DNA from: Janthinobacterium lividum
GTDB lineage: Bacteria; Pseudomonadota; Gammaproteobacteria; Burkholderiales; Burkholderiaceae_D
Assembly: GCF_034424625.1 (NCBI RefSeq)
Contig: NZ_CP139976.1
Location: 2,976,001 to 3,040,000 of the forward strand
Direction of reading: 5' to 3'
Length of the DNA stretch: 64,000 nucleotides
A model generated the notes under the pieces. The model worked only from the letters and a program-made list of their open reading frames with translations, made no database searches and was not told the origin of the DNA. Below are positions 14,895 to 30,415 of the stretch, piece after piece (position 1 is the first letter of the stretch; each line of letters begins with the position of its first letter). A program made the translations under genes and the position numbers.

Positions 14895-17432
14895 ATGGCT
14901 AATCCGGAGCAGGGAACAGACAATCTGTTTGCAGGGATCGGACAGCACGCCCGGCTGCTCAAGCTGGACACGCCGCTGGGCGCCGATGTCTTGCTGGCGC
15001 AGCGCGTCCATGCGGTCGACTGCGTGAGCGAGGGATACGACTATGTCGTCGATCTGCTGTCGCTCGACGATGCGGTGGAACTCAAGCAGCTGATCGCCCA
15101 GGAAGTGACCTTGTGGGTACTGCAGCCCGACGCCAGTTACAGCCCCATCCACGGTTACGTGCATACGGCCAGGAAGCTGGGCAGCGATGGGCAGCTGTCG
15201 GCCTACCAGATCGCTTTTGCCAGCTGCCTGCACTTCCTCAAGTTCCGCAAGGATGCGCGCATCTGGCAGAACAAGGGCGCCGACGACATCATCGCCGACG
15301 TGCTGGGCGGCCATCCGCAATGCCAGGGCAAATTCAGGTTCGACCTGAACCAGGCGGTGCGCCAGCGCTCGTATTGCACGCAATACGAGACGGACTGGCA
15401 ATTCGTCATGCGCATGCTGGAAAGCGAAGGCTGGTACGGCTATGTCGAACAGGCGGCCGATGGCAGCGGCCATCAGTGGATCATCACCGATTCGGTGCAA
15501 TCGCTCAAGCCGCTGCAGCCCGGGCAGATTGCCTTTCACCGCGCAGCTGGCACCGAGGAACTGGACAAGATCGTCCAGTGGGGCGGCGCCCGCACGCTGT
15601 CGAACAGCCAGCTGGCGACCCGCACCTACGACTACAAGGCACCGCGCAGCAATCACCAGGACGCCGTGCAGATCTTGCCCGGGCACGGCAGTATTCCGTC
15701 GCAGCTCGAGGTTTACGAATATACGGGCGCTTACAGCAGCGCCGACACCGAGCATGGCGCGCAACAATCGCGCCTCCGGGTGCAGGAGTGGGAATCGCGC
15801 ATCAAGCGGTTTTTTGGCACTTCGGGCGTGCGCCGGCTGCCGGTGGGCTGCTGGTTTACGCTGCTCGACCATCCGGCCCATGCCGAAGAGGCGGCCGAGG
15901 AGCGCCAGTTCGTCGTGCTGGGCGTGGAATGGGCGATCGAAAACAACCTGCCGCTGTCCAGCATGCAACAGGATTTTTCGGGCAGCCTGAAAGGCCGGCT
16001 GCAGCAGTTCAAGGAAGAGGCGGGCTTGAACCGCGCCGACCTGGCCCCGACCGGTACCGGCGATGAGCGCACCGGCCACTGCTTCAACCGCTTCGAAGTG
16101 CAGCGCCGCAGCGTGGAATACCGCAGTGCCTTCGTGCACGCCAAGCCGGCCATGCATCCGCAGACGGCCACCGTGGTCGGCCCGGCCGGCGAGGAAATCC
16201 ATACCGATACCCTGAACCGCGTGAAGGTGCGCTTCCATTGGGACCGCCTCAATCCCGGCGATGAAAAGGCCTCGTGCTGGGTGCGCGTGAGCTATCCGAA
16301 TGCCGGCGAGGGCTATGGCGCCGTGCATGTGCCGCGCGTCGGCCAGGAAGTGATCATCACCTTTCTCGACGGGGACGTGGACCGGCCCATCATCACGGGT
16401 CGCATCTACAACGGTGAACAGGCGCCGCAGTGGCATACCGATGGGCGCATGTCGGGCTACAAATCGAAAGAATACAAGGGCGCGGGCTTCAATCAGCTGG
16501 TGATGGACGACAACACCGAGCAGAACCGGGTGCAGCTGTACAGCAGCAATACCCATGCACAGCTCAACCTGGGCTATCTGGTGGGGCAGCAGGGCAATCA
16601 GCGCGACGGCTTTTTCGGTTCCGGCTTCGCCCTCAATTCGGATGCGTATGGCGCCATCACCACGCAAAAGGGACTGTACATCAGCACCTACGGCCGGCCC
16701 GGCGGGCGCGGCTCCCAGCTCGACGTGCGCGAGGCGTACGATCAGCTGACGCAGGCGCACGAGCTGGCGCAAAACCTGTCGGACGTGGCGGAAAAGTCCA
16801 GTGCCGAGGCGCTGCCGGGGCAGCAGGCGTTCCAGCAATTCATCGACGCGACCCAGGCGCAATACGACGGCGCCGGCCAGCAGGGCGCCAACCGCTTCGC
16901 CGAGCCGGTACTGCTGGCGGCGTCGCCGGCCGGCATCGGCCTCGCCACGCCGAAGAGCACGCACCTGCACAGCGGCGAACAGCTCACGATGTCGACGGGC
17001 GAGGATGCCAATCTGGCTGTCGGTAAAAGCCTGATCGCCAGCGTCAAGGAAAAGATCAGCCTGTTTGCATACAACGCGGGCATCAAGCTGTTCGCCTCGA
17101 AAGGAAAGGTCGAGATCCAGGCGCACGGCGGCGACATCGACATCATCGCCGAAAAGGTATTGCGCCTGCTGTCAGCCACGGACCGCATTGAAATTTTTGC
17201 CAAGAAGGAAATCATCCTCGGTGCCGATGGCTCGGCCATCAGGATCAACGGCGCGGGCATTACCGACATGACGAGTGGCCAGCGCATCAGCCATAACGCC
17301 GATTTTTCGATGCCAGGCCCCAAGACGATGCCGTATGCGCTGCCGGTGCTGCCCAAGGAAGTCTGCCTGGAATGCCTGAAAAAGCGCGCAAAACAGCGTA
17401 CCGCCTTCGTCAACAAAGGATCTCAACGATGA
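14895..17432 (+). CDS. vgrG: VgrG spike protein, cassette 1
   Basis: T6SS spike of 845 residues. Starts at ATG 14895 after AAGGGA. It has the gp27-like base domain, the gp5-like OB-fold region with RVKVRFHWDR and VPRVGQEVIITFLDGDVDRP around residues 440-490, and a DUF2345 needle. The tail ends with PYALPVLPKEVCLECLKK, a Pro-rich motif followed by CxxC that recurs in the cassette 2 VgrG. Its stop overlaps the DUF4123 adaptor start (ATGA). The cassette continues with lipoproteins, a DUF2235 lipase, PAAR and a membrane protein. Confidence 0.96.
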   Translation: MANPEQGTDNLFAGIGQHARLLKLDTPLGADVLLAQRVHAVDCVSEGYDYVVDLLSLDDAVELKQLIAQEVTLWVLQPDASYSPIHGYVHTARKLGSDGQLSAYQIAFASCLHFLKFRKDARIWQNKGADDIIADVLGGHPQCQGKFRFDLNQAVRQRSYCTQYETDWQFVMRMLESEGWYGYVEQAADGSGHQWIITDSVQSLKPLQPGQIAFHRAAGTEELDKIVQWGGARTLSNSQLATRTYDYKAPRSNHQDAVQILPGHGSIPSQLEVYEYTGAYSSADTEHGAQQSRLRVQEWESRIKRFFGTSGVRRLPVGCWFTLLDHPAHAEEAAEERQFVVLGVEWAIENNLPLSSMQQDFSGSLKGRLQQFKEEAGLNRADLAPTGTGDERTGHCFNRFEVQRRSVEYRSAFVHAKPAMHPQTATVVGPAGEEIHTDTLNRVKVRFHWDRLNPGDEKASCWVRVSYPNAGEGYGAVHVPRVGQEVIITFLDGDVDRPIITGRIYNGEQAPQWHTDGRMSGYKSKEYKGAGFNQLVMDDNTEQNRVQLYSSNTHAQLNLGYLVGQQGNQRDGFFGSGFALNSDAYGAITTQKGLYISTYGRPGGRGSQLDVREAYDQLTQAHELAQNLSDVAEKSSAEALPGQQAFQQFIDATQAQYDGAGQQGANRFAEPVLLAASPAGIGLATPKSTHLHSGEQLTMSTGEDANLAVGKSLIASVKEKISLFAYNAGIKLFASKGKVEIQAHGGDIDIIAEKVLRLLSATDRIEIFAKKEIILGADGSAIRINGAGITDMTSGQRISHNADFSMPGPKTMPYALPVLPKEVCLECLKKRAKQRTAFVNKGSQR

Positions 17433-18343
17433 ATTTTTTGCCTCTGGATCAGGCTTCGTTTGCAACAAACCTGGCAAGCGCGCTCGACAATCGTGAACTG
17501 AGCTGTTATGCCATTGTCGACCAGGCGCAGGACGGCACGCTGCTGGCGCACTTTGAAAAAGAGCAGATCAGCATGCACAGCAAGTGCCTGCTGCCGGCGG
17601 CGCTCGGGTCCGATACGGAAGCGTACGCGCCCCATCTGGTGGCGTTGTGGCCACTGGCTGCCGATACCGAAGCGTGGCCGGATATCGTGCAAGGCGCCGC
17701 CAGCCATCCTGCCAGCTTTACGCTGCTTGCAAGTACTGATGATTTCGACACGCTGTGGGAAAGCCTGGCGGCGTTTACTGAAATACTGCTGCCGGACGGC
17801 ACCGACATGATTTTTGCCTTCTGGGACCCGGCCATCCTGGGCACCCTGACGGGACAGAAAAGCGACCTGACTTTGCACGTGGGGGTGCAGGCGCTGACCG
17901 TTTCCCAGCGCGAGCGCCTGCTGCAAGGCATAGTAGCATGGTGGTACTGGGACCGCGATGGCCATCCCCAGCAGGTGCTGCCAGGGGAAAACGATCACGG
18001 CCTGCCTCCCCACCGGGTGACCTTGCCGCTCAAGCTGGCCCAGGTGCAGGTCGACATGCTGGTGGAAGCGGGCATGCCGGACCAGCTCTTGTCGATGCTG
18101 CAGGAAAACCAGCCGCAGCTGCTGATGGATATTCCACCAGCACAGCACTACCGCCTCGTGCAAAAACACCTGTTGGCCGCGCGCAAACTGAAGCTGTCCG
18201 GCATGCGCGACATTCTTAACTACACCTGCGCCGCCCTGATCTACGGCGACAAGCTCCAGACCAACCCGGTCATTGCGTCACTGCTGGCGCAGGTCAAGGC
18301 CGGCGATATCAGCTTTGAAGCTGCCATGGACCAGTTTCCATGA
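17429..18343 (+). CDS. DUF4123-type effector adaptor, cassette 1
   Basis: Predicted Tap/TEC-type chaperone that loads an effector on the adjacent VgrG. Start at 17429 overlaps the VgrG stop by 4 bases and gives 304 residues; the upstream reading from 17372 would run far into vgrG. The N-terminal half has DUF4123 features (YAIVDQAQDG near residue 24, LAAFTEILLPDGTDMIFAFWDP near 115, the latter being the characteristic beta-hairpin region). The C-terminal half is helical and presumably contacts the cargo. Its stop overlaps the next gene, a lipoprotein, by 4 bases. The family call is by pattern and context. Confidence 0.82.
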   Translation: MNFLPLDQASFATNLASALDNRELSCYAIVDQAQDGTLLAHFEKEQISMHSKCLLPAALGSDTEAYAPHLVALWPLAADTEAWPDIVQGAASHPASFTLLASTDDFDTLWESLAAFTEILLPDGTDMIFAFWDPAILGTLTGQKSDLTLHVGVQALTVSQRERLLQGIVAWWYWDRDGHPQQVLPGENDHGLPPHRVTLPLKLAQVQVDMLVEAGMPDQLLSMLQENQPQLLMDIPPAQHYRLVQKHLLAARKLKLSGMRDILNYTCAALIYGDKLQTNPVIASLLAQVKAGDISFEAAMDQFP

Positions 18344-18816
18344 GCATCTGGAAACAGGACGCAACGAAGTCAGGCCGGCGGCTGGCGCTCGGATTGATGG
18401 CGTGCGGTTTGCTACTGCCGCTGGCGGCGTGCGGGCAAGCGGTAAAGAAAGAGATATGGCTGAATGTGGAGATGGTCTCGTATGTCGATCGGCCCATCTT
18501 CGATATTATTTTTAACGGCACTGACTTGGGTGTGATGGACGAATATGGTTCCACTGGAACCATTACCGAGGTACGAATTCCTTTCGGTATCCAGGCGCTC
18601 AAGTGGACGCTCGATGGACCAAAGGACTCGCCGCGCAATGGTGAGGTCGTGACCATCAAAAACCAGTTGGTGATTTCAGCAGAGCAGATACCGCTTGGAA
18701 CGCGTTATTTTGGCTTGCATCTTTATCCGGACGACACCGCCGAGATAACCTTTGCGGACTTCATACCTGAACGAACAGCCCGAGGCGAGAAAATTCTGGC
18801 GGCGAGGAAGAAATAA
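18340..18816 (+). CDS. Lipoprotein, likely immunity protein (copy 1)
   Basis: 158-residue lipoprotein with signal peptide ending in the lipobox LAAC. The mature part has repeated short beta-strand patterns such as FNGTDLGVMDEYG and NGEVVTIKNQLVIS and no enzymatic motif. It is a clear paralogue of the protein at 19150-19635: both share NGT(D/G)LGVM and a near-identical C-terminal third. Tli1 immunity proteins against Tle1 phospholipases are periplasmic lipoproteins, and this gene sits between a DUF4123 adaptor and a DUF2235 lipase, so immunity is the best guess. After its stop the DNA junction GAAGAAATAACATG matches the junction at the second copy, where the lipase starts. Confidence 0.7.
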   Translation: MSIWKQDATKSGRRLALGLMACGLLLPLAACGQAVKKEIWLNVEMVSYVDRPIFDIIFNGTDLGVMDEYGSTGTITEVRIPFGIQALKWTLDGPKDSPRNGEVVTIKNQLVISAEQIPLGTRYFGLHLYPDDTAEITFADFIPERTARGEKILAARKK

Positions 18817-18817
18817 C

Positions 18818-19075
18818 ATGCGTGGCAAGGATGGAAGAAACGCGGCAAATCAAAAATTGGCACTTTCGCCGCCAGGCAGGCGTCACGCCACCATGGTGAC
18901 TGCACTGGGCTGGCAATCTCGCTGGTGGACTGCGGTCATGTCTTGCGAAAAGAAATCGGCTGAAAGTCTAGCTGTTCTCTTACCTAGGCAAGCCGATGCA
19001 CGAAACAGGGCGGTAGGTGTCCGCACCTGCAGCCGTGATATCGCTGCGGTGAAAACCGGCGCAAGGCTGCGTTGA
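18818..19075 (+). pseudogene. Decayed ORF, probable remnant of a DUF2235 effector start
   Basis: An 85-codon frame begins one base after the lipoprotein 1 stop, at the same spacing as the intact lipase after lipoprotein 2. Most of it resembles nothing, but the end (RTCSRDIAAVKTGARLR) matches RACNRDVAGVEPSAK near the N-terminus of the DUF2235 lipase at 19637, and the DNA matches too. I read this as an effector gene that was deleted or scrambled after duplication of an immunity-effector unit, leaving the first immunity gene as an orphan. It could instead be noncoding. The rest of the 18817-19149 gap shows nothing else. Confidence 0.4.
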
Positions 19076-19149
19076 AATGATAGCTAGCAGCACACTTGGT
19101 CACACACACAGCATAAGGGCATAACATCATGACAGGCGACGAACGAGAT

Positions 19150-19635
19150 ATGGTTATTCATAAATCACGACCATTGCTATCAGGCCGGCGGAGTGCCATC
19201 GGCTTGATAGGTTTGGGTTTGATGATGCCGCTTGCGGCTTGTGGACAAGGAAAGAAAAAAATGCAAAAAGAAACAGCGCTGCATGTAGAAGTGTTCTCTT
19301 ATATTGATCGAATCATTATTGATATTTCTTTTAACGGCACCGGCTTGGGCGTGATGAATAGGTACGGGCGCACGGGCACTATTACCGATGTTTACATTCC
19401 GTTTGGAATTCAAACATTGCGATGGAGATTGGATGGGCCAGAGGGTACACCGCGCAATGGCGAGGTGGTGACCCCAAAGAACCAACTCGTCATTTCGCCG
19501 GAGCAGATATCCCCGGGAACGCGTTATCTCGGTATACATCTTTATCCCGATGATACGGTCGAGTTCACCTTTGCGGACTCCATACCAGAACAAACAGCCA
19601 GAGGTCAAAAAATTCTTGCTAACAGGAAGAAATAA
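19150..19635 (+). CDS. Lipoprotein, likely immunity protein for the DUF2235 lipase (copy 2)
   Basis: 161-residue lipoprotein, signal peptide ending LAAC. The ATG at 19150 is preferred to that at 19129 because it aligns the N-terminus exactly with copy 1 (both have SGRR at residues 11-14). The body shares FNGTGLGVMNRYG, TITDVYIPFGIQ and HLYPDDT with copy 1. It ends one base before the DUF2235 lipase, the expected place for its immunity gene. The base composition is more AT-rich than the core genes, pointing to acquisition. Function inferred from location and lipidation. Confidence 0.72.
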   Translation: MVIHKSRPLLSGRRSAIGLIGLGLMMPLAACGQGKKKMQKETALHVEVFSYIDRIIIDISFNGTGLGVMNRYGRTGTITDVYIPFGIQTLRWRLDGPEGTPRNGEVVTPKNQLVISPEQISPGTRYLGIHLYPDDTVEFTFADSIPEQTARGQKILANRKK

Positions 19636-19636
19636 T

Positions 19637-21751
19637 ATGGCCGAAGGAGATAAATTGCTTGCGGCGCGGGCATGCAACCGTGATGTTGCCGGCGTAGAAC
19701 CCAGTGCGAAACAGAATTGCGCGGATACTGTAAATATCAGTATCTACTTTGATGGAACTGGAAATAATAGAGACGCGGATAAAGACCTCCGGCGTTGGTC
19801 GAATCCGGCGCGGCTGTGGCAGTCGGCTCAATTTCTTCTGGGGGGTAATTTTCCAAATTACGCTATTTATATCGCTGGGGTCGGGACGCGTTTTAATGGT
19901 ACAGCGACAGACTGGATGGACGAGAAGCTGAGGAGGGTGGAAGATTCGGAAGCCGCCGGACGTGGGCTTGGTGCTGGCGGAACACGCCGAACCGAGTTTG
20001 GGCAAACTAACGTTGATGAAGGTTTGCGTGTCGTCCTTATGCAAAATGCTGCCAAGCTGAACATCCCATTAAAGGCCTATAGAGAAAAGGGGAAGCCAGC
20101 CAATATCAATGGTCTCGCTGCCGCGATCGAGGCACATGGCCTGATTACTATCATTAATCTTTCTATCTTTGGCTTTTCACGCGGCGCAGCATTGGCCAGG
20201 GCTTTCAGCAACGACATGCTGAAAGCATGCACCACTGGAAAAGATGGCTTGCTGCGTTACAAGGGAGTACCCATACGCTTCAACTTTATGGGATTGTTCG
20301 ATACGGTTGCCTCGTTTGGCTTGCCAGCGCTGAACGTCGATACGCCCTTTAATGAAAAGAATCTGGTAGTACCGCATGCGGTCGAGCGTTGCGTGCACTA
20401 TGTAGCGGCGCATGAGTTGCGTTTTTCGTTTCCAGTCGATCTGATCCGGAAGAATGGGGCGCTCAAGTCTGGTTGGACTGAAACAGTGTATCCGGGAGCC
20501 CATTCCGATGTTGGGGGAGGGTACGAACCGAAAAACCAGAATATTTTGAATAGCTATGCGCGTATTCCGATGCGCGACATGATGCGCGAGGCAGTAAAGA
20601 GCGGTGTACGGTTGGTCGATTATGACGATATCCATAAGTCTAGTAAGGTAATTTTTGAAGAACGTTTTGAGTTTAAGCCTGAAGTCGAAGCGTCTTACAA
20701 GCAATACATGGCAGCAATTGGTGCGCCCGCCACCGTGGAGCAAGCTGTTACGGCCCACATGAAAGCCCTGTATTCCACATGGGGCACGATGACCAAGCGA
20801 AAAATCAAGACGCCGGACCTGATTGAAGCCGAGAGCGCAGGTGGCAGCAAAAAAGGTCATCCCGGCATTGCGCGTGAAGCTGAATTGTTGCTGGATGCCG
20901 CCAAAGCAAAAGAATTTGCCGTGTCGCATATTCTGCCCACGGTATCGGCAGCAACGCTGCAGGTCATCGGCATGAAGTACAGCATGATCGTACGCCCGGA
21001 AAAGTGGCGGCTCGATGCCTGGCAAGCGACGGCATCCGATCCCGTACTCAATTTCATCAAATCCGCAGTGCATGATTCCAAGGCCGGCTTCATGGGCGGC
21101 GTGGAGCCGTTCAGTTATTTCCGTCCGCGCGGCATGACAGAATCGTCGCGCAATGTGCTGGCGCAAGGCTTGGACTGGCTGGACGATACCGTCACTGCCA
21201 TCAAGAAGGGCGTGATCAAGGTGTATCACCGGACCGAGGGCGTGGTGGTGGAAACCTGGGAAGGCGGCAAGCGGGTGGCCACGCATACGTACAAGGTGGG
21301 TGAAAAATTTGTCGTCGATACCGTGCGTGCTGGCGTCACCTATACGGTAGAGGTGTATCAGAGCGGCAAGCAGGTCGTCATCGCTGCCGTGAAGCGCGGC
21401 CAGCAGATGGTCATTACCTCGGTCAACGTCGTCAAGAAAGAAATCACCGATGCCGCGACGGCCGTGCAGAAAAAGGCCGGTGAGGTGGTGGACGCAACCC
21501 AGGAGCTGGCGGCGGAGGCCGGGCGCAAGGTGCAAAGCGGCGTCAACCAGGCCAAGGACATGGCCACCGAAGCCGGGCGCAAGGTGCAGAGTGGCGCCAG
21601 CCAGGCCCGGGACATGGCCACTGAGGCCGCACGCAAGGTGCAGGGCGGCGCCAGCAAGGCGGCCAAGGCGATCAGCGACGGCGTCGATACGCAGGTAAAA
21701 GCGATTGAAGATGGCTGGAGTGCCTTCCGGCGCAATCAGCTGGGATTCTGA
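19637..21751 (+). CDS. DUF2235 phospholipase effector, Tle1 type (cassette 1)
   Basis: Predicted antibacterial lipase delivered by the cassette 1 VgrG. The ATG at 19637 follows AGGAAGA and gives 704 residues. The alpha/beta-hydrolase part has INISIYFDGTGNN-like start, the nucleophile motif GFSRG (Ser181), GLFDTVAS (Asp222) and PGAHSDVGGGY (His289), matching the Ser-Asp-His triad of the Tle1 family (known phospholipases A1/A2). Beyond about residue 470 comes a segment VHDSKAGF also found in the second lipase, then a region of valine-rich strands and an amphipathic repeat at the C-terminus. The PAAR gene starts one base after its stop, suggesting joint loading. Confidence 0.88.
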   Translation: MAEGDKLLAARACNRDVAGVEPSAKQNCADTVNISIYFDGTGNNRDADKDLRRWSNPARLWQSAQFLLGGNFPNYAIYIAGVGTRFNGTATDWMDEKLRRVEDSEAAGRGLGAGGTRRTEFGQTNVDEGLRVVLMQNAAKLNIPLKAYREKGKPANINGLAAAIEAHGLITIINLSIFGFSRGAALARAFSNDMLKACTTGKDGLLRYKGVPIRFNFMGLFDTVASFGLPALNVDTPFNEKNLVVPHAVERCVHYVAAHELRFSFPVDLIRKNGALKSGWTETVYPGAHSDVGGGYEPKNQNILNSYARIPMRDMMREAVKSGVRLVDYDDIHKSSKVIFEERFEFKPEVEASYKQYMAAIGAPATVEQAVTAHMKALYSTWGTMTKRKIKTPDLIEAESAGGSKKGHPGIAREAELLLDAAKAKEFAVSHILPTVSAATLQVIGMKYSMIVRPEKWRLDAWQATASDPVLNFIKSAVHDSKAGFMGGVEPFSYFRPRGMTESSRNVLAQGLDWLDDTVTAIKKGVIKVYHRTEGVVVETWEGGKRVATHTYKVGEKFVVDTVRAGVTYTVEVYQSGKQVVIAAVKRGQQMVITSVNVVKKEITDAATAVQKKAGEVVDATQELAAEAGRKVQSGVNQAKDMATEAGRKVQSGASQARDMATEAARKVQGGASKAAKAISDGVDTQVKAIEDGWSAFRRNQLGF
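21515..21676 (+). repeat. Three tandem 54-bp units in the lipase C-terminus
   Basis: Units 21515-21568, 21569-21622 and 21623-21676 each encode an 18-residue pattern A(G/A)RKVQ(S/G)G..., rich in Ala, Lys and Gln and probably helical, similar in style to LEA-type 11/18-residue helices. The third unit is diverged. The repeat ends about 75 bases before the stop. Confidence 0.75.
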
Positions 21752-22026: not shown

Positions 22027-23373
22027 ATGAGCGATATTTTCTTGCCGCAAGCACCGCCCGTACACCGTCCGCGCCGCCGGCTGGTGTTCAGGATAATCTT
22101 GTGGATACTTGTGCTGGCAATTGTCGGCATTGCCTGGATTGCTCTGCTGGCAAGCGTGGCGCCATCGCGCCTGGATTTGTCAGGTGGGCGCGCAATACTG
22201 ATGCTCTGCGCACCGCCCGTGCTGCTGGCCTTTCTGGGCTGGACAGGCCTGCAATTTCTTGCAACCCCAGGACCCGTGCCGTCTTTGCCTGCCAGCACGG
22301 CGATCCCGGCGCCGGCGCAGGAGCTGCCGCAGGAACCGCCGGCGCCGCCGATTCCCCTGGTGCGCCTGCATATCGGTGCCTGGAGCGCGCTGACGCCCCA
22401 TGGTGCCGTGACCGAAACGGCCGAAGGCAGCAAGGCGCGCAAGCAAGTCTTCAAACCTGACAAGGCCATCCTGCACCCGTCCGGCTACCCGGCCCATGCC
22501 GGTATCGTCGATCCTCTCGACCTCGGTGCGATGGGGCATGCCGCCGGCACGCGTCTGCGCCTCCCGCGCGTGATGACCCTGCTCGCCGCCATCCTTGACG
22601 ACCTGCATGCGCAGCAGGGCAGCCTGGTTCGCCGCATCGATGGCCCGGTGAGCGTGTATTGGCTGGCGCCCGATGCGATATCCGGCGGCGCGGCGCAGGG
22701 CGCAGTCTTTGCACGGGCATGGCAGCATTCGGCCTGGCGTGACATGCCCTATGTCTTGCAGCCGATGGCGGCCGGCGAAGCCCGTCTTTTCACGGTACTG
22801 TCGGCCCTGCAGCACGGCATTCGCCAGCCTGCCGTTTGCGCCATCATCGTCGGCGCCGACAGCTTGCTGGACCCCGAGGAACTGGCGCCTGCCTTGGCGC
22901 TGGGACAGGTGTTTGCCGCCAGTGCGCCGCAGGGCTTCATTCCTGCCGAAGGCGCGGGCGGCATCGTGCTGTGGAACCCGGACAGGGCGCCGGAGCAGGG
23001 TTGGGCGCATGCCGCAATACTGGGACCGGTCAGCACCGTGCAGGGTGCCGCGACGCACGCCGCCGTGCATGGCGTGATGTCCGCCGCGCTCATGGCGTCG
23101 GGCATGGACGCCGCCGATATCGCCCATGTTGTCAGCGATGCCGATCACCGCCCGCAAGCAAGCATGGCCGTGGTGGCCGCCATGTTGCAGCTGCTGGCCG
23201 GTCTCGACCCGCTGGAACAGCGGATGAGCCCCATGGAGTCGGCAGGCAGTTTTGGCGCTGCAACCGATCTGGTCCATCTTGCGCTGGCGGTAGAACTGGC
23301 CAGTGAAAAACCGGTGCTGGCGCTCGGCACCACAGGCGGACAGTGCGCTGGCGTCGTGGTAATGCCCGCCTGA
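22027..23373 (+). CDS. Two-TM protein with an apparently inactive thiolase/ketosynthase-like domain (A)
   Basis: 448 residues, no assigned role. Two hydrophobic segments (about residues 20-45 and 58-78), a Pro/Ala linker, then a large soluble domain. Within it, GFIPAEGAGGIVLW (near residue 312) matches the ketosynthase motif G.xxGEGAG.LvL, and SDADHRPQ followed by MESAGSFGAATDLVHLALA corresponds in order to the HGTGT and GHxxGAAG regions, but the catalytic Cys and first catalytic His are not recognisable. So the fold is likely thiolase-like and non-catalytic. The gene starts 7 bases after a PAAR gene. Its paralogue lies at 37273-38721, also directly after a PAAR gene. Fold is inferred from motif order; function unknown. 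Confidence 0.72.
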   Translation: MSDIFLPQAPPVHRPRRRLVFRIILWILVLAIVGIAWIALLASVAPSRLDLSGGRAILMLCAPPVLLAFLGWTGLQFLATPGPVPSLPASTAIPAPAQELPQEPPAPPIPLVRLHIGAWSALTPHGAVTETAEGSKARKQVFKPDKAILHPSGYPAHAGIVDPLDLGAMGHAAGTRLRLPRVMTLLAAILDDLHAQQGSLVRRIDGPVSVYWLAPDAISGGAAQGAVFARAWQHSAWRDMPYVLQPMAAGEARLFTVLSALQHGIRQPAVCAIIVGADSLLDPEELAPALALGQVFAASAPQGFIPAEGAGGIVLWNPDRAPEQGWAHAAILGPVSTVQGAATHAAVHGVMSAALMASGMDAADIAHVVSDADHRPQASMAVVAAMLQLLAGLDPLEQRMSPMESAGSFGAATDLVHLALAVELASEKPVLALGTTGGQCAGVVVMPA

Positions 23374-23482: not shown

Positions 23483-26284
23483 ATGTCATCCACCTCGACC
23501 GACAAGATTGCTGACGCACTGGCCGCTTTCACGAGCGCCACGCGGCTGTACGAATTGATCATCGGCGAGGACGCGAACGGCAGCTTGCTGGTCGAAGCCT
23601 TTGCCGCCGACGAACGGCTGCAGGAGGTCGGCGCGCGCGACGTCATCGCCTTGTCCACCAGCGCCCATGTTGCGCTGGCGTCCCTGCTGGGCCAGCCGGC
23701 CAGCCTGCATATCAGCCTGGCGGACGGCACGCGCACGCAGTTTTCCGGCTATGTCAGCGAAGCGGCCATGCTAGGCAGCAATGGCGGCCTGGCGCGCTAC
23801 CGGCTGCGCATCACGCCTTGGTTGTGGCTGCTGACGCAAGTGCGTAACAGCCGCGTCTGGCAAGATCGGAGCGTGACGGCCATCATCGACGAGGTATTGC
23901 AGGCGTATGCGCCGTATGCGCTGTGGCGCTGGAGCGACGAGGTCGCATCTTTCATGCAGGACGCGGGCGAACGCAGCTATTGTTGCCAGTACCGCGAATC
24001 GGATTTCGATTTCGTGCGCCGCCTGCTGACGGAAGAGGGCATCGCCTGGCGCTTCGAGGCGCACACTCTGGTCCTGTTCGCCGACAGCAGCCAGGCTTGC
24101 GCCACGCCCGAGGACGCCAGCAGCGCACAGGCGGGCGGGCTGCGCTTTCATGGCGCGCGCGTCGGCGAGCCGGGCGACAGCGTGCAAGCCTTGAGCGCGC
24201 GGCGCAGCCTGCAGGTGGGCCTGAGCAGCGTGCTCAGCTATGACTACAAGGCGAAAAAGGCCGTGGCCGCCAGCGTGCCGGCCAACATCGCGCTTGGCGG
24301 CAAGAACGCGCCGGTGCTGGAAAGCTACGACACACCGGGCCAGTACTGGTACGCCAGCGCCGCCCAGGCGCAGCGCTACGCGCAGTTGCAGATGCAGGCC
24401 CATGAAGCGCGCGCCCAGCTGTGGCAGGCCCGTTCGACCGTGCGCACCCTGCGCGCCGGCACGCGCTTTACCCTGACGCAGGGACCGTTACCGCAGGCCG
24501 ATGGTGCCGCGTCCGAATATGTCGTGCTGCGCGTGGCCAGCATCGGCGTCAACAACCTGCCGGCGCCGGCCCTGGAGGGATTGGCGGAACTGTTCGGCCC
24601 GATACCGGAATTGCTGGAAGAAACCGTGGCGGAGTGGGGCGCAGGATTTCCCGATGTCGCCGCCGCGATCGCCCAGGCGCAAACCAGCGGTTACGCCAAC
24701 TGCATCGAGATGATCACCGCAAGCACCCCGTGGCGTCCGGTGCATGACAGCAACGATGCGCGCCAGCACGCCACGCCGACCGCCCTGGGCAGCCAGAGCG
24801 CCATCGTCATCGGCGCCGATGGCAATGACGTGGCCAGCGGCGCCGATGAAATTTATTGCGACAGGCTGGGCCGGGTGCGCATCCGCTTCCACTGGCAACA
24901 GGAGACTGGCGCGACTTGCTGGGTGCGCGTGGCGCAGCGCGCGGCCGGCGGCGGCATGGGCAGCCAGTTCCTGCCGCGCATCGGCCAGGAAGTGCTGGTG
25001 CAATTCCTGGAAAACGATATCGACCGGCCCGTCATCATCGGCGCGCTGTACAACGGGCAGGGCGAGGGCGGCACCGTAGCCACGCCGGGCGGTATTGCGC
25101 GCGATCAAAACGACGCTGGTGTTTTCCATCCGGCCCACGATCACGCCGTAGCGGGGCAGGGTAATCTGGCGGGCGGCAACAGTCCCTTGTGGCATGGCGC
25201 CGCAGGCGCCAGCGCGGCGCACCGCAATGCCAGCGCGCAATGGGGAGTTCGCAGCAAGGAGTTCGGCAAGGCGGGCGGCATGGCCGGTTACAACCAGCTG
25301 CTGTTCGACGACACCGACAGCCAGGGCCGGGTACAGTTGAAAAGCAGCCATGCGGCCAGCGAGCTGAGCCTGGGCCATCTGATCCACGGCGCCGACAATT
25401 ACCGTGGCAGCCTGCGCGGCGCCGGCGCCGAGCTGCGCACCGATGCGTATGGCGCGGTGCGCGCCAGGGCGGGCTTGCTGATCACCAGTTATGTGCTCAA
25501 GCACGAGGCCGCGCAGCGCGATCCTGCCGGCGACAATGCCGGCGGCATCGCGCTATTGAAGCAGGCAGTGATGCTGGGCGACACCTTCAGCGCTGCCGCC
25601 AAAACGCACGAAACGGTGGCCTACGCCAGCCATGTGGGCGTCACCGCACCGAATGCCAGCGAACTCGACGAGCAGGCGGCGCCCCTGAAAGCCATGCAGG
25701 CCAGCGTGGCGGGCATGCACGAACAATTGCCGCACACCAAGGACTCGCTGATCGCGATTGCCGCCAAGGCTGACCTGGGCCTGATCGCCGGGCAGGACCT
25801 GCAACTGGCCAATGGCGAGAGCGTCGTCCTGATGAGCGGGCAGGACACGCAATGGAGCAGCGGCGGCCAGTGGCGCCTGCACACGGGCCAGGCCATCGGC
25901 ATGTTGGGCGGCGCCGTCAAGGCCGGGGAGGGGGGGGCCGGGGTGCAGCTGATCGCCGCCCAAGGCATCATCGACGCGCAGGCGCAAGGCGACACCTTGC
26001 GGCTCCAGGCGCGCGACGAGGTCAACGTCATCAGCGCCAACGCGCATGTCGACTGGGCGGCGGCGAAAAGCATCCGCCTGTCGACGGCGGGCGGGGCCAA
26101 CATCACCATCGAGGGCGGGAACATCACCATCCAGTGTCCTGGCAAGATCACCGTGTTTGCAGGCAAGAAAAGCTTCATCGGGCCCACGCGCACACCGTAT
26201 GTGATGCCGCCGCTGCCATCGAGCACGTGTAAAAGCTGCATTTTGAGCGCCATGCAACAGGGCGCAGCGGGAGTGCTGCGGTGA
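23483..26284 (+). CDS. vgrG: VgrG spike protein, cassette 2
   Basis: 933-residue spike protein with gp27-like region (CCQYRESDFDFV near residue 170), gp5 OB-fold (RVRIRFHWQQETG, LPRIGQEVLVQFLENDID), and a DUF2345 needle ending ITIEGGNITIQCPGKITVF. The tail PYVMPPLPSSTCKSC repeats the Pro-rich plus CxxC motif of VgrG cassette 1. It is very similar to the VgrG at 40868 for most of its length, but the tails differ completely. A GTG-started DUF4123 adaptor overlaps its stop by 4 bases. The 109-base gap in front has no recognised promoter. Confidence 0.96.
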   Translation: MSSTSTDKIADALAAFTSATRLYELIIGEDANGSLLVEAFAADERLQEVGARDVIALSTSAHVALASLLGQPASLHISLADGTRTQFSGYVSEAAMLGSNGGLARYRLRITPWLWLLTQVRNSRVWQDRSVTAIIDEVLQAYAPYALWRWSDEVASFMQDAGERSYCCQYRESDFDFVRRLLTEEGIAWRFEAHTLVLFADSSQACATPEDASSAQAGGLRFHGARVGEPGDSVQALSARRSLQVGLSSVLSYDYKAKKAVAASVPANIALGGKNAPVLESYDTPGQYWYASAAQAQRYAQLQMQAHEARAQLWQARSTVRTLRAGTRFTLTQGPLPQADGAASEYVVLRVASIGVNNLPAPALEGLAELFGPIPELLEETVAEWGAGFPDVAAAIAQAQTSGYANCIEMITASTPWRPVHDSNDARQHATPTALGSQSAIVIGADGNDVASGADEIYCDRLGRVRIRFHWQQETGATCWVRVAQRAAGGGMGSQFLPRIGQEVLVQFLENDIDRPVIIGALYNGQGEGGTVATPGGIARDQNDAGVFHPAHDHAVAGQGNLAGGNSPLWHGAAGASAAHRNASAQWGVRSKEFGKAGGMAGYNQLLFDDTDSQGRVQLKSSHAASELSLGHLIHGADNYRGSLRGAGAELRTDAYGAVRARAGLLITSYVLKHEAAQRDPAGDNAGGIALLKQAVMLGDTFSAAAKTHETVAYASHVGVTAPNASELDEQAAPLKAMQASVAGMHEQLPHTKDSLIAIAAKADLGLIAGQDLQLANGESVVLMSGQDTQWSSGGQWRLHTGQAIGMLGGAVKAGEGGAGVQLIAAQGIIDAQAQGDTLRLQARDEVNVISANAHVDWAAAKSIRLSTAGGANITIEGGNITIQCPGKITVFAGKKSFIGPTRTPYVMPPLPSSTCKSCILSAMQQGAAGVLR

Positions 26285-27204
26285 CGCCCGACAGCGTTTC
26301 GGCATTGCACCACTGGGTCCGGGCCAGTCTTGAGCGGCAACGCCTGCCTTATCTGCTGCTCGACAGTGCGCAAGCCGAAAACAGCCACCTGGCGCTGCAG
26401 CGCTGGAAAGTGCCATATGCGTCGCTGTTCGAGGAAACCCACGAAGCGAGCCTGCCCGAGATCGCGCCCCTGCTGATACGGCTGTCCGGCCTTGCGCCGG
26501 CCATGCTGGAAAAAGTCTGCGACTGGGCCGAAAAGCTCGGTTATGGCGCGCCTTGCCTGAGCTGGATGGAAAGTCCATGGCCCTTGCCCGAACTGGCGCG
26601 GCATTTGCGCCAGTTTCACGCCGTCGGCCTGAGCGACGAGCAGCAGATGATGCTGCGCTGGTATGACACGCGCATCCTGCCCGTCTGGCTGGCCTGCCTG
26701 GAGCCGCTGCAGCGCGAGCAGTTTGTGGCGGGACTGTTGAACTTGCAGTATATCAACCGTTTTGGCGACGTTGCCGTCCTGCTGGAGGTCGATACTGCCG
26801 GTGCTGCACCGGACGCTGCGCTCATGGACTCGCCGCTCATCCACCTTGACGATGCGCAATACGGCATGCTGGTCGATGCCGGCGACGCCGATACGCTGAT
26901 CAGTCATTTGCGGCGGGTGATCACGGACGAAACCAGCGATACCCCGCCCCGGTTGCTGTACGAATTCGTCGCCCGCTACCAGCAGCGCGCACTGGCCGCC
27001 GGCATCGACGACCTGGACCGCCAGACGCAATACCTGCTGCTGGCCTTGTATACGTCCGGCGCCGGCATCGAACATCCCGATTTCATCGCCCTGATGCAAG
27101 ACCCACCCACCTCTATCGAAAGTTTTTATGAAGCCATGCAAGCCTTGTCCGACGATGTATGGGAAGCCGGCCCGCCTTTATGGGGCGTACAAGTTGAAGC
27201 TTGA
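26281..27204 (+). CDS. DUF4123 adaptor, cassette 2
   Basis: 307-residue DUF4123-like loader protein with GTG start at 26281 overlapping the vgrG stop. Residues 1-120 contain the family pattern (RLPYLLLDSAQAEN near 20 and a Cys/Trp-rich CLSWMESPWPLPEL near 97). From about residue 200 there is a helical C-terminal domain, SHLRRVITDETSDTPPR through WEAGPPLWG, which is repeated as a separate exported protein encoded immediately downstream. Expected role: bind the DUF2235 effector at 28265 and hand it to VgrG. Confidence 0.8.
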   Translation: MTPDSVSALHHWVRASLERQRLPYLLLDSAQAENSHLALQRWKVPYASLFEETHEASLPEIAPLLIRLSGLAPAMLEKVCDWAEKLGYGAPCLSWMESPWPLPELARHLRQFHAVGLSDEQQMMLRWYDTRILPVWLACLEPLQREQFVAGLLNLQYINRFGDVAVLLEVDTAGAAPDAALMDSPLIHLDDAQYGMLVDAGDADTLISHLRRVITDETSDTPPRLLYEFVARYQQRALAAGIDDLDRQTQYLLLALYTSGAGIEHPDFIALMQDPPTSIESFYEAMQALSDDVWEAGPPLWGVQVEA

Positions 27205-27645
27205 CCGGCTGCCGGCGCTGGCACTGTGCCTGAGTTTGGTCTTGGCATTTGCCAGCAGCAACATCGCGGCGCAGACAACGGTAAAAGTCGCGCCGCAAGC
27301 GTCAAGCGCGGTGAAGCATGGCAAACTGAAACCGGCCGACACCGCCAACCTGGTCAGCCATTTGCGGCGCGTGATCACCGATGAAACCAATGACACGCCG
27401 CCGCGCGTGCTGAACGCCTTTGTCGCGAAATACCAGCAGAGGGCGCTCGATGCCGGGATCGATGACCTCGACCGGCAAACGCAGTACGTCTTGCTGGCGC
27501 TATATACCTCCGGCAAGGCCATGGAACAGCCCTTGTTTATTGCATTCATGAAAAACCCACCCGCATCGCTCGATGCTTTTTACGACGCGCTGCAAGCCTT
27601 GCCGAAAACCGTTTGGGAAGCGGGGCCACCGTTGTGGGAGTCGTA
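26881..27645 (+). repeat. Tandem duplication of the adaptor 3' end
   Basis: About 300 bases encoding the adaptor C-terminal domain (26881-27184) recur at about 27336-27645. Over the best-conserved stretch 46 of 53 residues are identical, and differences are mostly silent or conservative at DNA level, so both copies have been kept under coding constraint. The second copy acquired a signal peptide in front. Confidence 0.85.
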
Positions 27646-27661
27646 TGAGCCAAAGGGATAA
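27194..27661 (+). CDS. Exported stand-alone copy of the DUF4123 adaptor C-terminal domain
   Basis: About 155 residues if the TTG at 27194 is used; an ATG at 27155 in the same frame would add 13 residues. I prefer TTG because it leaves a compact signal peptide (MKLDRLPALALCLSLVLAF, then AAQ) with GGGG 8 bases upstream. The frame overlaps the adaptor tail. The mature protein, after a linker with KHGKLKPADT, is a copy of adaptor residues about 200-300. No enzymatic motif. Being periplasmic it could act as an immunity-like sequestering protein or an assembly factor; there is no sequence basis to choose. It lies between the adaptor and a DUF3304 lipoprotein. Confidence 0.78.
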   Translation: MKLDRLPALALCLSLVLAFASSNIAAQTTVKVAPQASSAVKHGKLKPADTANLVSHLRRVITDETNDTPPRVLNAFVAKYQQRALDAGIDDLDRQTQYVLLALYTSGKAMEQPLFIAFMKNPPASLDAFYDALQALPKTVWEAGPPLWESYEPKG

Positions 27662-27732: not shown

Positions 27733-28233
27733 ATGATAAAAAAACTAATGCCGAAAAATTTACTCAATGTATTTTTATGTATTTTTATGGCATTTTCAAA
27801 TATTGCTTGTAGCAAGGAATCAATGAAAACTAGCGTGAGTTTGACGGCATATAACCATACTGAGAGCGGCGTCGGAAGTTATATTGTGACACTGGCAGAT
27901 GGAACTTCAGTAGAGGCTGGCTACCTGGCTCCTGGCGAAGGGGGGGGCGGGGAAACTTGCTGTCTTTCAATTCCTTCAGTATGGAAGCCTGGCATGAAAG
28001 CGACGATATCTATGCAAATATTAAAAAATGGTAAGCCGATTCGAGTGGAAAAGACTGTCTCTGTACCTCGTTACAATTCGTCCGATGCCGGCAGGTTTGT
28101 CGTTCATTTTCTTCACGATGGCAGCTTAAAGGTTTTTGTAACTAAATACTCGTTGGGACATCGAAAATATCCACTTTCTGGCAAGGAGGCGGAACTGGAG
28201 CCTGGCGTTCCACTAGAAATAATATGGGAATAG
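27733..28233 (+). CDS. DUF3304 lipoprotein, likely immunity protein of cassette 2
   Basis: 166 residues with signal peptide and lipobox NIAC. The mature part has the DUF3304 pattern: a GG/Cys pair (GETCCLSIPSVWKPGM, near residue 75) and a beta-sandwich-like remainder. DUF3304 lipoproteins often accompany T6SS lipase effectors. It precedes the DUF2235 lipase by 31 bases, as the lipoprotein in cassette 1 does. ATG at 27733 has CAGGAG upstream. AT-rich composition compared with the surrounding core genes suggests acquisition. Confidence 0.78.
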   Translation: MIKKLMPKNLLNVFLCIFMAFSNIACSKESMKTSVSLTAYNHTESGVGSYIVTLADGTSVEAGYLAPGEGGGGETCCLSIPSVWKPGMKATISMQILKNGKPIRVEKTVSVPRYNSSDAGRFVVHFLHDGSLKVFVTKYSLGHRKYPLSGKEAELEPGVPLEIIWE

Positions 28234-28264: not shown

Positions 28265-30415
28265 ATGTCTATTGTTTATACAGGAAGAAAAGCTCCTCTC
28301 GATGGGCGACGCAGGCTCACTCCCAAAGAATCGTCACAGCGTGCCAAGGCGATGGCTTGCGTCAGGTCGCCTCATAAAACAGAATGTCAGGGGCAGATTT
28401 ATATCGGACTGTTTTATGATGGCAGTGGAAATAATCATGATTGGAAGCAGAAAGATCCGCTAGTCAATCCCAAGAACTTGACACAAAGGCAAAGAAACAA
28501 GCACAGCAATGTTGCCCGGCTTTGGGATGCACATCTTGATGAAGAAAAAAATGGATTCTTTCGTGCATATATGCCAGGTGTTGGTACGCCGTTCAAGGAG
28601 ATTGGCGATACGGTCGAGGCATTAACTGATAATGCGGGTGGTGGCTTCGGTTACATGGGTGCCGATCGTATCAATTGGGGTATCACTTCATTGCTCAATG
28701 CAGTGCACCGTTATTTGACAGGTACACCTATGCTAGGTTGGGACGAGCAAAGGCTGCTGGTTAATTGGATGAGTTCGCAAATGCTGCTTGGGTTGGAAGG
28801 CGTGCAGCGTTGGACAATGCTGACGTCGCTTGAAGAAAAACTGGCGCGTGTCGTCAAAAATCATCAGCGCAAGCTCAAGCAAATCAACGTATCCATCTTC
28901 GGTTTTTCTCGTGGCGCGGCCGAAGCGCGCGCCAGCGCGCACTGGCTGCATCAGGTGTTCGAACGGGAAACCGGCGCATTTGAGCTGGCAGGCGTCCCCA
29001 TACGCATAGGCTTCCTGGGAATTTTTGATACCGTCGCCGCCGTTGGCGTCGGTGACGTAACGCCGGTGACCTTCGGGCATATGGCCTGGGGAAATGGAAC
29101 CCAGAGCATTCATCCCGTAGTTGAAGAGTGCACGCATTTCATCGCTTTGCATGAACAGCGCGCCAGTTTTCCGTTGGAATCGGCAACGGGACGGGGCAAT
29201 GTTGGTTACCCCGGCATGCATTCTGACGTAGGTGGGGGATATTACCCTGGCGAGCAGGGCCGTTCCATGCCGGGCTGGGGGCCTTCGCCGCATCTGTCGC
29301 AGATTCCCTTGATCGACATGCATTTCGCCGCCCTGAAAGCCGGTGTGCCCTTGCGCACCCTGAATGAGATGAAAGAGGCCAGGCACAGTTTGCTATTGCT
29401 TTCCTTTGCCACTGACCCAAGACTGATCGCCTCCTATAACAACTGGCTGACCCATAACGGCATCAAGGGCGCGGACGTGAAGACCTTTACCGAGGCGCAT
29501 ACAAAACAATATCTGCGCTGGCGCGGCATGTTGCACGCGCAGGGAAAAACGCAATTGAAGAGCAAGCGTTTTTTCAAGGAGTCGGATAAGCCAGGCCAGA
29601 AAGACTTGCTGGAGGCCGACACCGATCTGGGGATATATTTGCGCTCCTGGCGCGAACGAAAGATGGCCAACGCAACCGTGGCGGGGTGGCTCAATGAACG
29701 TGCCAAGACGGTCTTGAATCGCGTCAGCCCGGCTGGCATGCTGTTTGTCGAAGACGGGAAAGACCCGTTAAGCGACTGGGAAGAGCGGTTTTTGAAAATC
29801 ATGACGGAAGGCGCGCAGCCGCCGGCCGGCTGCGTCACGCTGTTTGAAGATTATGTGCACGATTCGCGCGCCGGCTTTCGCATCCTGGGCAAGCACGAAC
29901 CGGTATGGCTGACCGGCGGCTATGGCCGCTTCCGCAACGTTTTCGTGCAAAGCGATGATTATTCGAACATGTCGAATATCGCCAATGAATCTTTGAAGGC
30001 CGTCAAGGCAGCAGGCGACGCGGCCGTGACCTACTTCCAGAAGTTGTATGGCTATACGGTCAGCACTTACCGGGCAGCGCGCAGAAAGGTTGCCGCGACC
30101 GCGAAGGCGGTGGCCGAGGCCGAAAAACGGCTGGAGCGGCAGGCGGTGGCAACGTACAGGGAAACGAGCCGGATGATCGTCGATGGCGCCACCCGCGCCG
30201 GTCACGGCGTGCATGATGCCGGGGTGGAGGTGGAAAAAAAATTGGACCGCGCAGTCAAGACCGCGAAAAACGCCATGCAGCAAGCCAGCCAGGAAGCCCG
30301 GCTTTATTATCAGGCCGAAAAAAAGGTCATCTTGAAATATGCGAAGGCAGAGGCCGAGTGGAAGGCGCAGCTGGAAAAGCGCTGGCGCGAGGAAGAGCGG
30401 GAAAAAGCGAAATAA
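28265..30415 (+). CDS. DUF2235 phospholipase effector, Tle1 type (cassette 2)
   Basis: 716 residues. Alpha/beta-hydrolase domain of the Tle1 family: GLFYDGSGNN near residue 49, nucleophile GFSRG (Ser215), GIFDTVAAVG (Asp255) and PGMHSDVGGGY (His319). It shares the central VHDS(R/K)AGF motif with the first lipase, but the C-terminal 150 residues are instead a charged helical, probably coiled-coil region (QAVATYRETSRM ... AEKKVILKYAKAEAEWKAQL). The N-terminal region is AT-rich. Start ATG at 28265. It is the last gene of the cassette and converges on tssA. Confidence 0.88.
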   Translation: MSIVYTGRKAPLDGRRRLTPKESSQRAKAMACVRSPHKTECQGQIYIGLFYDGSGNNHDWKQKDPLVNPKNLTQRQRNKHSNVARLWDAHLDEEKNGFFRAYMPGVGTPFKEIGDTVEALTDNAGGGFGYMGADRINWGITSLLNAVHRYLTGTPMLGWDEQRLLVNWMSSQMLLGLEGVQRWTMLTSLEEKLARVVKNHQRKLKQINVSIFGFSRGAAEARASAHWLHQVFERETGAFELAGVPIRIGFLGIFDTVAAVGVGDVTPVTFGHMAWGNGTQSIHPVVEECTHFIALHEQRASFPLESATGRGNVGYPGMHSDVGGGYYPGEQGRSMPGWGPSPHLSQIPLIDMHFAALKAGVPLRTLNEMKEARHSLLLLSFATDPRLIASYNNWLTHNGIKGADVKTFTEAHTKQYLRWRGMLHAQGKTQLKSKRFFKESDKPGQKDLLEADTDLGIYLRSWRERKMANATVAGWLNERAKTVLNRVSPAGMLFVEDGKDPLSDWEERFLKIMTEGAQPPAGCVTLFEDYVHDSRAGFRILGKHEPVWLTGGYGRFRNVFVQSDDYSNMSNIANESLKAVKAAGDAAVTYFQKLYGYTVSTYRAARRKVAATAKAVAEAEKRLERQAVATYRETSRMIVDGATRAGHGVHDAGVEVEKKLDRAVKTAKNAMQQASQEARLYYQAEKKVILKYAKAEAEWKAQLEKRWREEEREKAK

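What the first reader, a model, noticed from the sequence alone, without database searches (positions are those of the whole stretch)
26881..27661. Exported duplicate of a DUF4123 adaptor's cargo-side domain
The C-terminal domain of the cassette 2 adaptor is duplicated in tandem (46 of 53 residues identical in the central stretch) and the copy carries a signal peptide. An adaptor domain, normally cytosolic, therefore has a periplasmic twin. It could act as an immunity-like decoy that binds the incoming effector, or stop self-loading. Adaptor-derived periplasmic decoys are, to my knowledge, undescribed.
Basis: partly seen in the sequence, partly recalled or inferred. Interest (0 to 1): 0.8.

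Follow-up and report, generated by a model that had tools for sequence, protein, structure and literature searches.

The report
Exported copy of toxin-adaptor domain
Some soil and water bacteria make a second, apparently exported copy of the adaptor domain that holds their membrane-attacking toxin, and the copy travels with, and is sometimes fused to, the antidote protein, so it most likely helps protect cells from that toxin.

Summary
The C-terminal lobe of the DUF4123 adaptor (26281-27204) is duplicated in the next gene (27128-27661) behind a predicted signal peptide; 46 of 53 central and 72 of 106 aligned residues are identical. The copy belongs to an old, constrained family: 7 of 40 Janthinobacterium genomes and 3 of 34 of a second genus, Herbaspirillum, plus metagenome relatives. 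All 10 copies with genomic context lie beside DUF3304 (Tli1) immunity genes. In 5 genomes, at one shared site, copy and DUF3304 survive without VgrG, adaptor or lipase beside them, yet the domain stays under purifying selection (omega about 0.13). P0038 is a signal-peptide-DUF3304-tail fusion, and a DUF3304-like lipoprotein family ends in a diverged tail-like domain. In P. aeruginosa Tla1 this lobe makes most Tle1 contacts. Best reading: a periplasmic co-immunity protein built from the adaptor's effector-binding lobe, binding the lipase where the adaptor would. Export, binding and neutralisation are untested. 'Stops self-loading' is unlikely for an exported protein. My literature searches showed no description of such a protein.

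The parts
23483..26284 (+). VgrG spike protein with DUF2345, first gene of the cassette
   Evidence: Pfam and NCBIfam matches
26281..27204 (+). DUF4123 (Tap/Tla1-type) adaptor, 307 aa; GTG start
26884..27201 (+). C-terminal helical lobe of the adaptor, the duplicated part
   Evidence: alignment; profile comparison of adaptors and twins, E 8.7e-51 over 108 columns
27128..27661 (+). Exported twin of the adaptor C-lobe, 177 aa from ATG 27128 (alternatives ATG 27155, TTG 27194); overlaps the adaptor by 77 bases in another frame
27200..27274 (+). Predicted signal peptide core and cleavage region of the twin (LDRLPALALCLSLVLAFASSNIAAQ)
   Evidence: rule-based score; no SignalP available
27338..27655 (+). 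Copied C-lobe within the twin
   Evidence: 72 of 106 residues identical to 26884 onward; AF2 pLDDT block means 88-98 for residues 41-150 of the 154-residue query
27733..28233 (+). DUF3304 lipoprotein-like gene, Tli1-type immunity protein
   Evidence: PF11745 E 3.4e-16; NCBIfam Tli1a_fam E 3.6e-20, under its cut-off
28265..30415 (+). Tle1-type phospholipase effector (DUF2235)
   Evidence: PF09994 E 5e-22

Best explanation
The twin is a periplasmic accessory (co-)immunity protein against the Tle1-type lipase of this cassette, made from the effector-binding lobe of the cassette's own adaptor. SHOWN: it is a copy of the whole C-lobe bar the first turns of its first helix, lacks the DUF4123 lobe, has a predicted signal peptide, is under purifying selection, and is linked to DUF3304 immunity genes even where adaptor and lipase are gone from the locus. 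TAKEN FROM THE LITERATURE (P. aeruginosa Tla1): the DUF4123 lobe docks on VgrG and the C-lobe contributes most of the contacts with the Tle1 catalytic domain. INFERRED: after Sec export the twin binds incoming Tle1 in the periplasm on the face the adaptor uses, beside or together with the DUF3304 lipoprotein, and so blocks or sequesters the enzyme. Because it lacks the VgrG-binding lobe and sits in another compartment it would not disturb loading.
For: (1) Next to DUF3304 in 10 of 10 exported twins with genomic context: G000, G001, G007, G009, G013, G016, G024, G233, G096, G193. (2) In 5 of these the cluster is twin plus one or two DUF3304 genes, with no VgrG, adaptor or Tle1 gene in the 16 kb read (in G013 the contig ends 536 bases upstream of the twin ORF). 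Genome-wide, 4 of the 5 have no second tail-bearing gene and the fifth, G024, only a broken one. (3) In those 5 the tail domain has omega about 0.13 (2dlnL 53.2 against omega 1) while the linked N-terminal part has about 0.65 (2dlnL 3.1). (4) P0038 is a signal-like N-terminus (core 2.59), DUF3304 and tail in one protein. (5) A family of DUF3304-like lipoproteins (Pfam 13-20 bits, under the cut-off of 22) ends in a diverged tail-like domain: hhalign 78.7%, E 2e-6 over 97 columns, 10 controls at 0.0-0.2%. Over 1962 ORFs and proteins in hand, of the 22 rows shown after its own members 21 are tail proteins. It also drew in two DUF4123-like proteins of one genome of another family, aligned at their C-lobes. 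(6) Exported tails do not form one clade: AU p 0.024, 6 label changes, consistent with repeated origin. (7) The main Tla1 contacts with Tle1, residues 190-200, 207-210 and 242-243 (PMC13133936, section 7), map inside the copied part.
Against: No binding, export or protection data. The five adaptor-less loci share one chromosomal site, so they are one event followed by descent. A different adaptor, Tla3, produced in the periplasm of E. coli, did not protect against Tle3 (PMC6560169, section 15). In Tap3-Tke5 about 54% of the adaptor residues in contact come from an N-lobe loop (PMC12909789, passages), and four DUF4123-lobe residues of Tla1 also touch Tle1, so a C-lobe alone may bind weakly. The exported form is uncommon: 7 of 40 and 3 of 34 genomes in its two genera, and none recognised elsewhere in the order and class samples. 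Several cassettes read here (L033, L035, L036) have DUF3304-like genes and no twin, as has the second DUF3304 gene of the window's own genome. In G162 a free tail lacks a signal peptide. The AU result could also come from gene conversion between twin and adaptor, and well-supported branches alone force only one change.
Confidence: 0.6

Rival explanations
1. The twin is a subunit or cofactor of the DUF3304 lipoprotein: it binds Tli1, not the lipase, and stabilises or positions it. Protection is still the outcome, but the twin does not use the adaptor's docking face.
For: Constant neighbourhood with DUF3304 and the fused forms (P0038; tail-extended DUF3304-like lipoproteins) fit a Tli1 partner equally well.
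Against: The domain comes from the lobe that contacts Tle1 in Tla1 (PMC13133936), and the segments mapping to those contacts lie in the copied part. The interaction section of that paper (section 5) describes no Tla1-Tli1 contact; whether the pair was assayed is not stated there.
Confidence: 0.17
2. The twin is a periplasmic chaperone or sorting factor for the lipase itself (folding or handling of toxin that leaks into, or passes through, the producer's periplasm), not immunity.
For: It is a chaperone domain, and in the intact cassettes the lipase is present.
Against: It persists under purifying selection in 5 genomes whose cluster lacks the lipase, and in G193 the unit that keeps it holds only a remnant of the start of a Tle1 gene.
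Confidence: 0.1
3. Non-functional duplication with a chance hydrophobic N-terminus.
For: Present in a minority of genomes; fast-changing N-terminus.
Against: Strong purifying selection on the domain, open frame and hydrophobic core in all 10 genomic copies, several lineages, fusion to DUF3304.
Confidence: 0.05
4. The twin protects against a different effector, or has a periplasmic role unrelated to Tle1, and merely hitch-hikes with the immunity genes.
For: In the orphan loci no lipase is present to define the target.
Against: Linkage to DUF3304 and Tle1 in both genera, including rearranged cassettes; fusion to DUF3304.
Confidence: 0.08

Closest known systems
Tla1, DUF4123 adaptor of Tle1 in Pseudomonas aeruginosa (PMC13133936; NCBIfam NF053803)
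   Same: The cassette adaptor matches the Tla1 model over residues 25-248; the twin is homologous to the part corresponding to Tla1's C-terminal lobe, which contacts Tle1.
   Different: The adaptor scores under the model's cut-off. The twin lacks the DUF4123 lobe that docks on VgrG, carries a predicted signal peptide, and persists without VgrG or lipase beside it.
Tli1a, DUF3304 outer-membrane lipoprotein immunity of Tle1 (PMC13133936; PF11745)
   Same: Same compartment by prediction, same operon, same inferred target; in P0038 both are one protein.
   Different: Different fold (helical lobe against the beta sandwich reported for Tli1a); no DUF3304 match in the twin; no lipobox at its cleavage region.
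Tap3 of Pseudomonas putida in complex with Tke5 (PDB 9r8g chain B)
   Different: Tap3 is a whole adaptor for a pore-forming MIX effector; much of its contact is through an N-lobe loop.
Tla3 and TplEi/Tli4 of P. aeruginosa (PMC6560169)
   Same: A published case where an adaptor (DUF2875) is homologous to an immunity protein, so an adaptor-immunity link has a precedent.
   Different: Other protein family; there the protein first suspected of immunity proved a cytoplasmic adaptor and did not protect in the periplasm.
Orphan immunity genes of T6SS (search listings only, e.g. PMC5361080, PMC10470768)
   Same: Immunity genes kept without their effector, as in the 5 Janthinobacterium loci.
   Different: The titles and abstracts listed name no adaptor-derived gene in such arrays; I read none of these papers.

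Membership tests
DUF4123 (Tap/TEC/Tla) T6SS adaptor - the twin | N-terminal DUF4123 lobe (PF13503) | tested here: not met
   No Pfam match for the twin at E 0.1
DUF4123 (Tap/TEC/Tla) T6SS adaptor - the twin | Helical C-lobe of the adaptor fold | tested here: met
DUF4123 (Tap/TEC/Tla) T6SS adaptor - the twin | Cytoplasmic, links VgrG to the effector | not testable with these tools
   Predicted signal peptide speaks against it
DUF4123 (Tap/TEC/Tla) T6SS adaptor - gene 26281-27204 | DUF4123 lobe plus C-lobe, next to vgrG | tested here: met
Tli1 immunity (DUF3304) - the twin | DUF3304 domain | tested here: not met
   No match in the twin; it is fused to DUF3304 in P0038
T6SS immunity protein in the broad sense - the twin | Placed in the compartment where the effector acts | tested here: inconclusive
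   Signal peptide by rule only: core hydropathy 2.19-3.43 in 29 of 29 tail proteins taken as exported (28; P0038 2.59), against at most 1.61 in the first 60 residues of 22 adaptors; over the first 75 residues one adaptor reaches 2.25
T6SS immunity protein in the broad sense - the twin | Genetically linked to the effector or its immunity gene | tested here: met
   10 of 10 contexts beside DUF3304
T6SS immunity protein in the broad sense - the twin | Kept under selection without the effector beside it | tested here: met
   5 orphan loci, omega about 0.13; one shared site
T6SS immunity protein in the broad sense - the twin | Binds and neutralises the effector | not testable with these tools
   Needs bench work
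Lipoprotein - the twin | Lipobox cysteine at the cleavage site | tested here: not met
   By eye, the window twin has no lipobox cysteine at the cleavage region (sequence); relative P0021 does have LLGC

The most novel reading that the evidence does not exclude
Using the adaptor's effector-binding lobe as periplasmic antidote is a general, repeatedly evolved form of T6SS immunity. It appears as a stand-alone exported lobe (this window), as a lobe fused behind DUF3304 (P0038), and as a diverged C-terminal domain of a whole DUF3304-like lipoprotein family. Delivery and immunity proteins would thus share one effector-docking domain, and the face that loads the toxin would also be the face that disarms it.
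Probability: 0.5. Interest if true: 0.85.

Novelty: new variant of a known kind. Interest (0 to 1): 0.72.

Why it matters
T6SS adaptors and immunity proteins both bind the same toxin but are usually treated as unrelated parts. Here one domain seems to serve both sides: inside the cell it loads the lipase, and exported it travels with the antidote genes, even without the lipase. If true it gives a simple route by which new immunity can arise (copy the part that already fits the toxin and add a signal peptide). It might help explain why producing Tli1a and Tli1b together with periplasmic Tle1 failed to protect E. coli (PMC13133936, section 6). It also makes the adaptor-Tle1 interface testable as an inhibitory site.

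Tried and rejected
Chance similarity: rejected (score 389 against shuffle maximum 60). Recent tandem duplication: rejected (dS about 1.8). Twin confined to this strain: rejected. One origin of all exported tails: rejected at AU p 0.024, with the caveats that starred branches alone force only one change and that gene conversion would look alike.

Rows dropped: G294, a weak hit to the signal-peptide part with a stop. For the tree, 32 of the 66 proteins were put in (near-copies, fragments and further adaptors left out), plus 10 twins and 9 adaptors read from the window and fetched loci. In the order search with the extended-lipoprotein profile, 4 of 300 genomes matched; G507 and G093 match only the DUF3304-like part and were not read. 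In one search only the best 30 rows were printed.

Literature: searches listed no paper whose title or shown abstract describes an exported adaptor domain; only three papers were opened, so this is weak evidence of novelty. PMC13133936: abstract, outline, term passages, sections 5, 6 and 7, part of the reference list. PMC12909789: term passages. PMC6560169: term passages and section 15. PMC11582642 (Colautti 2024, Tap6/Tap14): not held; known only through the other papers. All others: search listing only.

Full report
WHAT IS THERE. The cassette reads VgrG (23483-26284), DUF4123 adaptor (26281-27204), twin (27128-27661), DUF3304 lipoprotein (27733-28233), Tle1-type lipase (28265-30415), all on the + strand. 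The twin repeats the adaptor's C-terminal lobe: 72 of 106 residues, 46 of 53 in the best stretch. The window lies in a Janthinobacterium-like genome; the name rests on protein hits named Janthinobacterium and on named contigs equal in length to contigs of genomes with the same genus code.

START AND EXPORT. The favoured start is ATG 27128, inside the adaptor gene in another frame. In all 5 loci where the adaptor is gone, the same GAAAGT-n-ATG block still precedes the twin. The N-terminus has the layout of a Sec signal peptide. By a simple rule, 29 of 29 tail proteins taken as exported have a hydrophobic core of 2.19 to 3.43 (28; P0038, first scored over the wrong stretch, 2.59). The first 60 residues of 22 adaptors reach at most 1.61, but one adaptor reaches 2.25 within the first 75. 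SignalP was not available.

WHO HAS IT. An exported copy is present in 7 of 40 genomes of the genus and in 3 of 34 of a second genus of the family, two of whose members are Herbaspirillum sp. GW103 and H. robiniae HZ10. In the family sample 14 of 294 genomes matched at all, counting adaptors and one weak row that I dropped. The order and class samples added none that I recognised (G442 not examined). The protein database adds exported relatives of 44-65% identity, mostly unnamed metagenome proteins.

NEIGHBOURHOOD. All 10 exported copies with context sit beside DUF3304. Five lie in loci with an adaptor (G000, G001, G233, G096, G193). Five (G007, G009, G013, G016, G024) lie in small clusters of twin plus one or two DUF3304 genes without VgrG, adaptor or lipase in the 16 kb read; in G013 the contig ends 536 bases upstream of the twin ORF. 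Four of these five genomes have no second tail-bearing gene anywhere at E 0.001, and G024 has only a broken one. The five share one chromosomal site, so they are one event. The twin's first bases, with about 14 bases before its ATG, still match window 27114-27155, which in the window is adaptor 3' end and twin 5' end at once (separate blastn hits of 33-42 bases in three loci, inside a longer hit in G013, none in G016). In the adaptor's frame a 19-residue match to adaptor residues 280-298 shows in G007 (E 0.005), weakly in G009 and G016. This suggests, but does not prove, that the cluster came out of a full cassette. In the orphans one DUF3304 copy is interrupted (G007), one lacks its start (G013) and one is absent (G016), while 5 of 5 twins are open.

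SELECTION. Among the five orphan twins the copied lobe has omega about 0.13 (2dlnL 53.2 against 1), while the N-terminal part has about 0.65 (2dlnL 3.1). With the two cassette twins added the values are 0.10 (138.4) and 0.5 (9.6), so the N-terminal part is also mildly constrained there, where it partly overlaps the adaptor gene. The domain is thus kept for a function that needs neither the adaptor gene nor the lipase gene beside it. The same genomes do hold other Tle1-like genes: matches of 500 or more residues are 35-37% identical, shorter ones up to 42%. G024 holds fragments of a decayed close copy (up to 85%) and G013 a 31-residue piece at 71%. So 'no lipase at all' would be wrong.

FUSIONS. 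P0038 (273 aa) is a signal-like N-terminus, DUF3304 (38-131) and tail (167-265) in one chain. An adaptor P0067, 67% identical over 37% of P0038, comes from a contig of the same length, 4088 bases, perhaps the same one. Separately, five longer lipoprotein-like proteins from three genomes of the second genus (L031 two, L033 two, L035 one), and a sixth in G064 (L094, by eye), are DUF3304-like and carry about 110 further residues; all those scanned score under Pfam's cut-off for DUF3304 (13-20 bits against 22). The extension profile of the five matches the tail profile with hhalign probability 78.7%, E 2e-6, over 97 columns; their N-terminal part, the reversed extension and 8 column shuffles gave 0.0-0.2%. 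Searched over 1962 ORFs and proteins in hand, a set rich in tails, the extension profile's best rows after its own members are tail proteins, exported ones first (E from 1.6e-4); of the 22 such rows printed 21 are tails. The full-length profile also drew in two proteins of one genome of another family that match DUF4123 under the Pfam cut-off (25.3 and 16.9 bits against 25.8), aligned at their C-lobes. I read this as a remote but real relation; it is less sure than the main finding, and P0038 is a single sequence.

ORIGINS. On a tree of 51 tails the exported ones need 6 label changes (5-6 over bootstraps), and holding them as one clade is rejected at p 0.024. The Janthinobacterium twins stand beside their own adaptors (94/89, not starred). 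Repeated origin or exchange between twin and adaptor both fit; well-supported branches alone do not force more than one change.

HOW IT MAY WORK. In P. aeruginosa the DUF4123 lobe of Tla1 docks on VgrG, and the C-lobe gives most contacts with the Tle1 catalytic domain (predicted residues 190-200, 207-210, 243; R197, R92 and D242 confirmed by two-hybrid; PMC13133936, section 7). Four DUF4123-lobe residues also touch Tle1. By the NCBIfam alignments of whole adaptors the C-lobe contacts fall inside the copied part, whose first residue corresponds to about 191. Tle1 acts in the periplasm and its immunity Tli1a is an outer-membrane lipoprotein (same paper, abstract and section 6). An exported C-lobe is therefore an effector-binding domain without the VgrG-binding half, in the compartment where the toxin acts, encoded with the antidote. 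The step from 'could bind' to 'protects' is inference. Against it stands that periplasmic Tla3 did not protect from Tle3 (PMC6560169, section 15).

COMPARISON AND VERDICT. It is not a DUF4123 adaptor (that lobe is absent) and not a DUF3304 Tli1; it works, in my reading, like a T6SS immunity protein with a new building block. The Tla3 paper notes that Tla3 is homologous to the immunity protein TplEi, so a link between adaptor and immunity families is not without precedent. In eight literature searches no listed title or shown abstract described an exported adaptor domain. I rate it a new variant of a known kind, interest 0.72.

Noticed in passing
L032:12355-12930 (G193, H. robiniae): The twin ORF begins with about 35 residues 51% identical to the start of Tle1, fused in frame upstream of the signal peptide: a lipase gene seems lost between DUF3304 and twin while both neighbours stayed.
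   Followed up: partly
L017:7183-10798 (G024): A decayed copy of the cassette: VgrG start joined to a piece of tail, three open DUF3304 genes, lipase only in fragments.
   Followed up: partly
L034:8089-8562 (G162): A free-standing tail of 157 aa without an evident signal peptide near a VgrG gene; a counter-example to the exported form.
   Followed up: no
P0023 (232 aa, 5 contigs): A VgrG piece (PF05954) fused to an adaptor tail, named as from uncultured Herbaspirillum: either a deletion scar or a real VgrG-tail fusion.
   Followed up: no
window 14895-21751: A second Tle1 cassette: VgrG, a diverged DUF4123 adaptor (17372-18343), two similar lipoprotein-like ORFs (18340-18816, 19129-19635) and another Tle1-like lipase (19550-21751).
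   Followed up: partly
window 22027-23373: 448-aa ORF between the two cassettes with no Pfam match; an 81% identical ORF lies beside the same genes in G024 (L017).
   Followed up: no
L012-L016, upstream of the orphan twins: An A/T-rich block shared by the five loci, with a TATAAT-like hexamer in L014, precedes the orphan clusters (sequences printed); perhaps a promoter gained after the cassette was lost.
   Followed up: no
P0021 (145 aa): An exported tail with an LLGC lipobox-like motif, so some relatives may be lipoproteins like Tli1.
   Followed up: no
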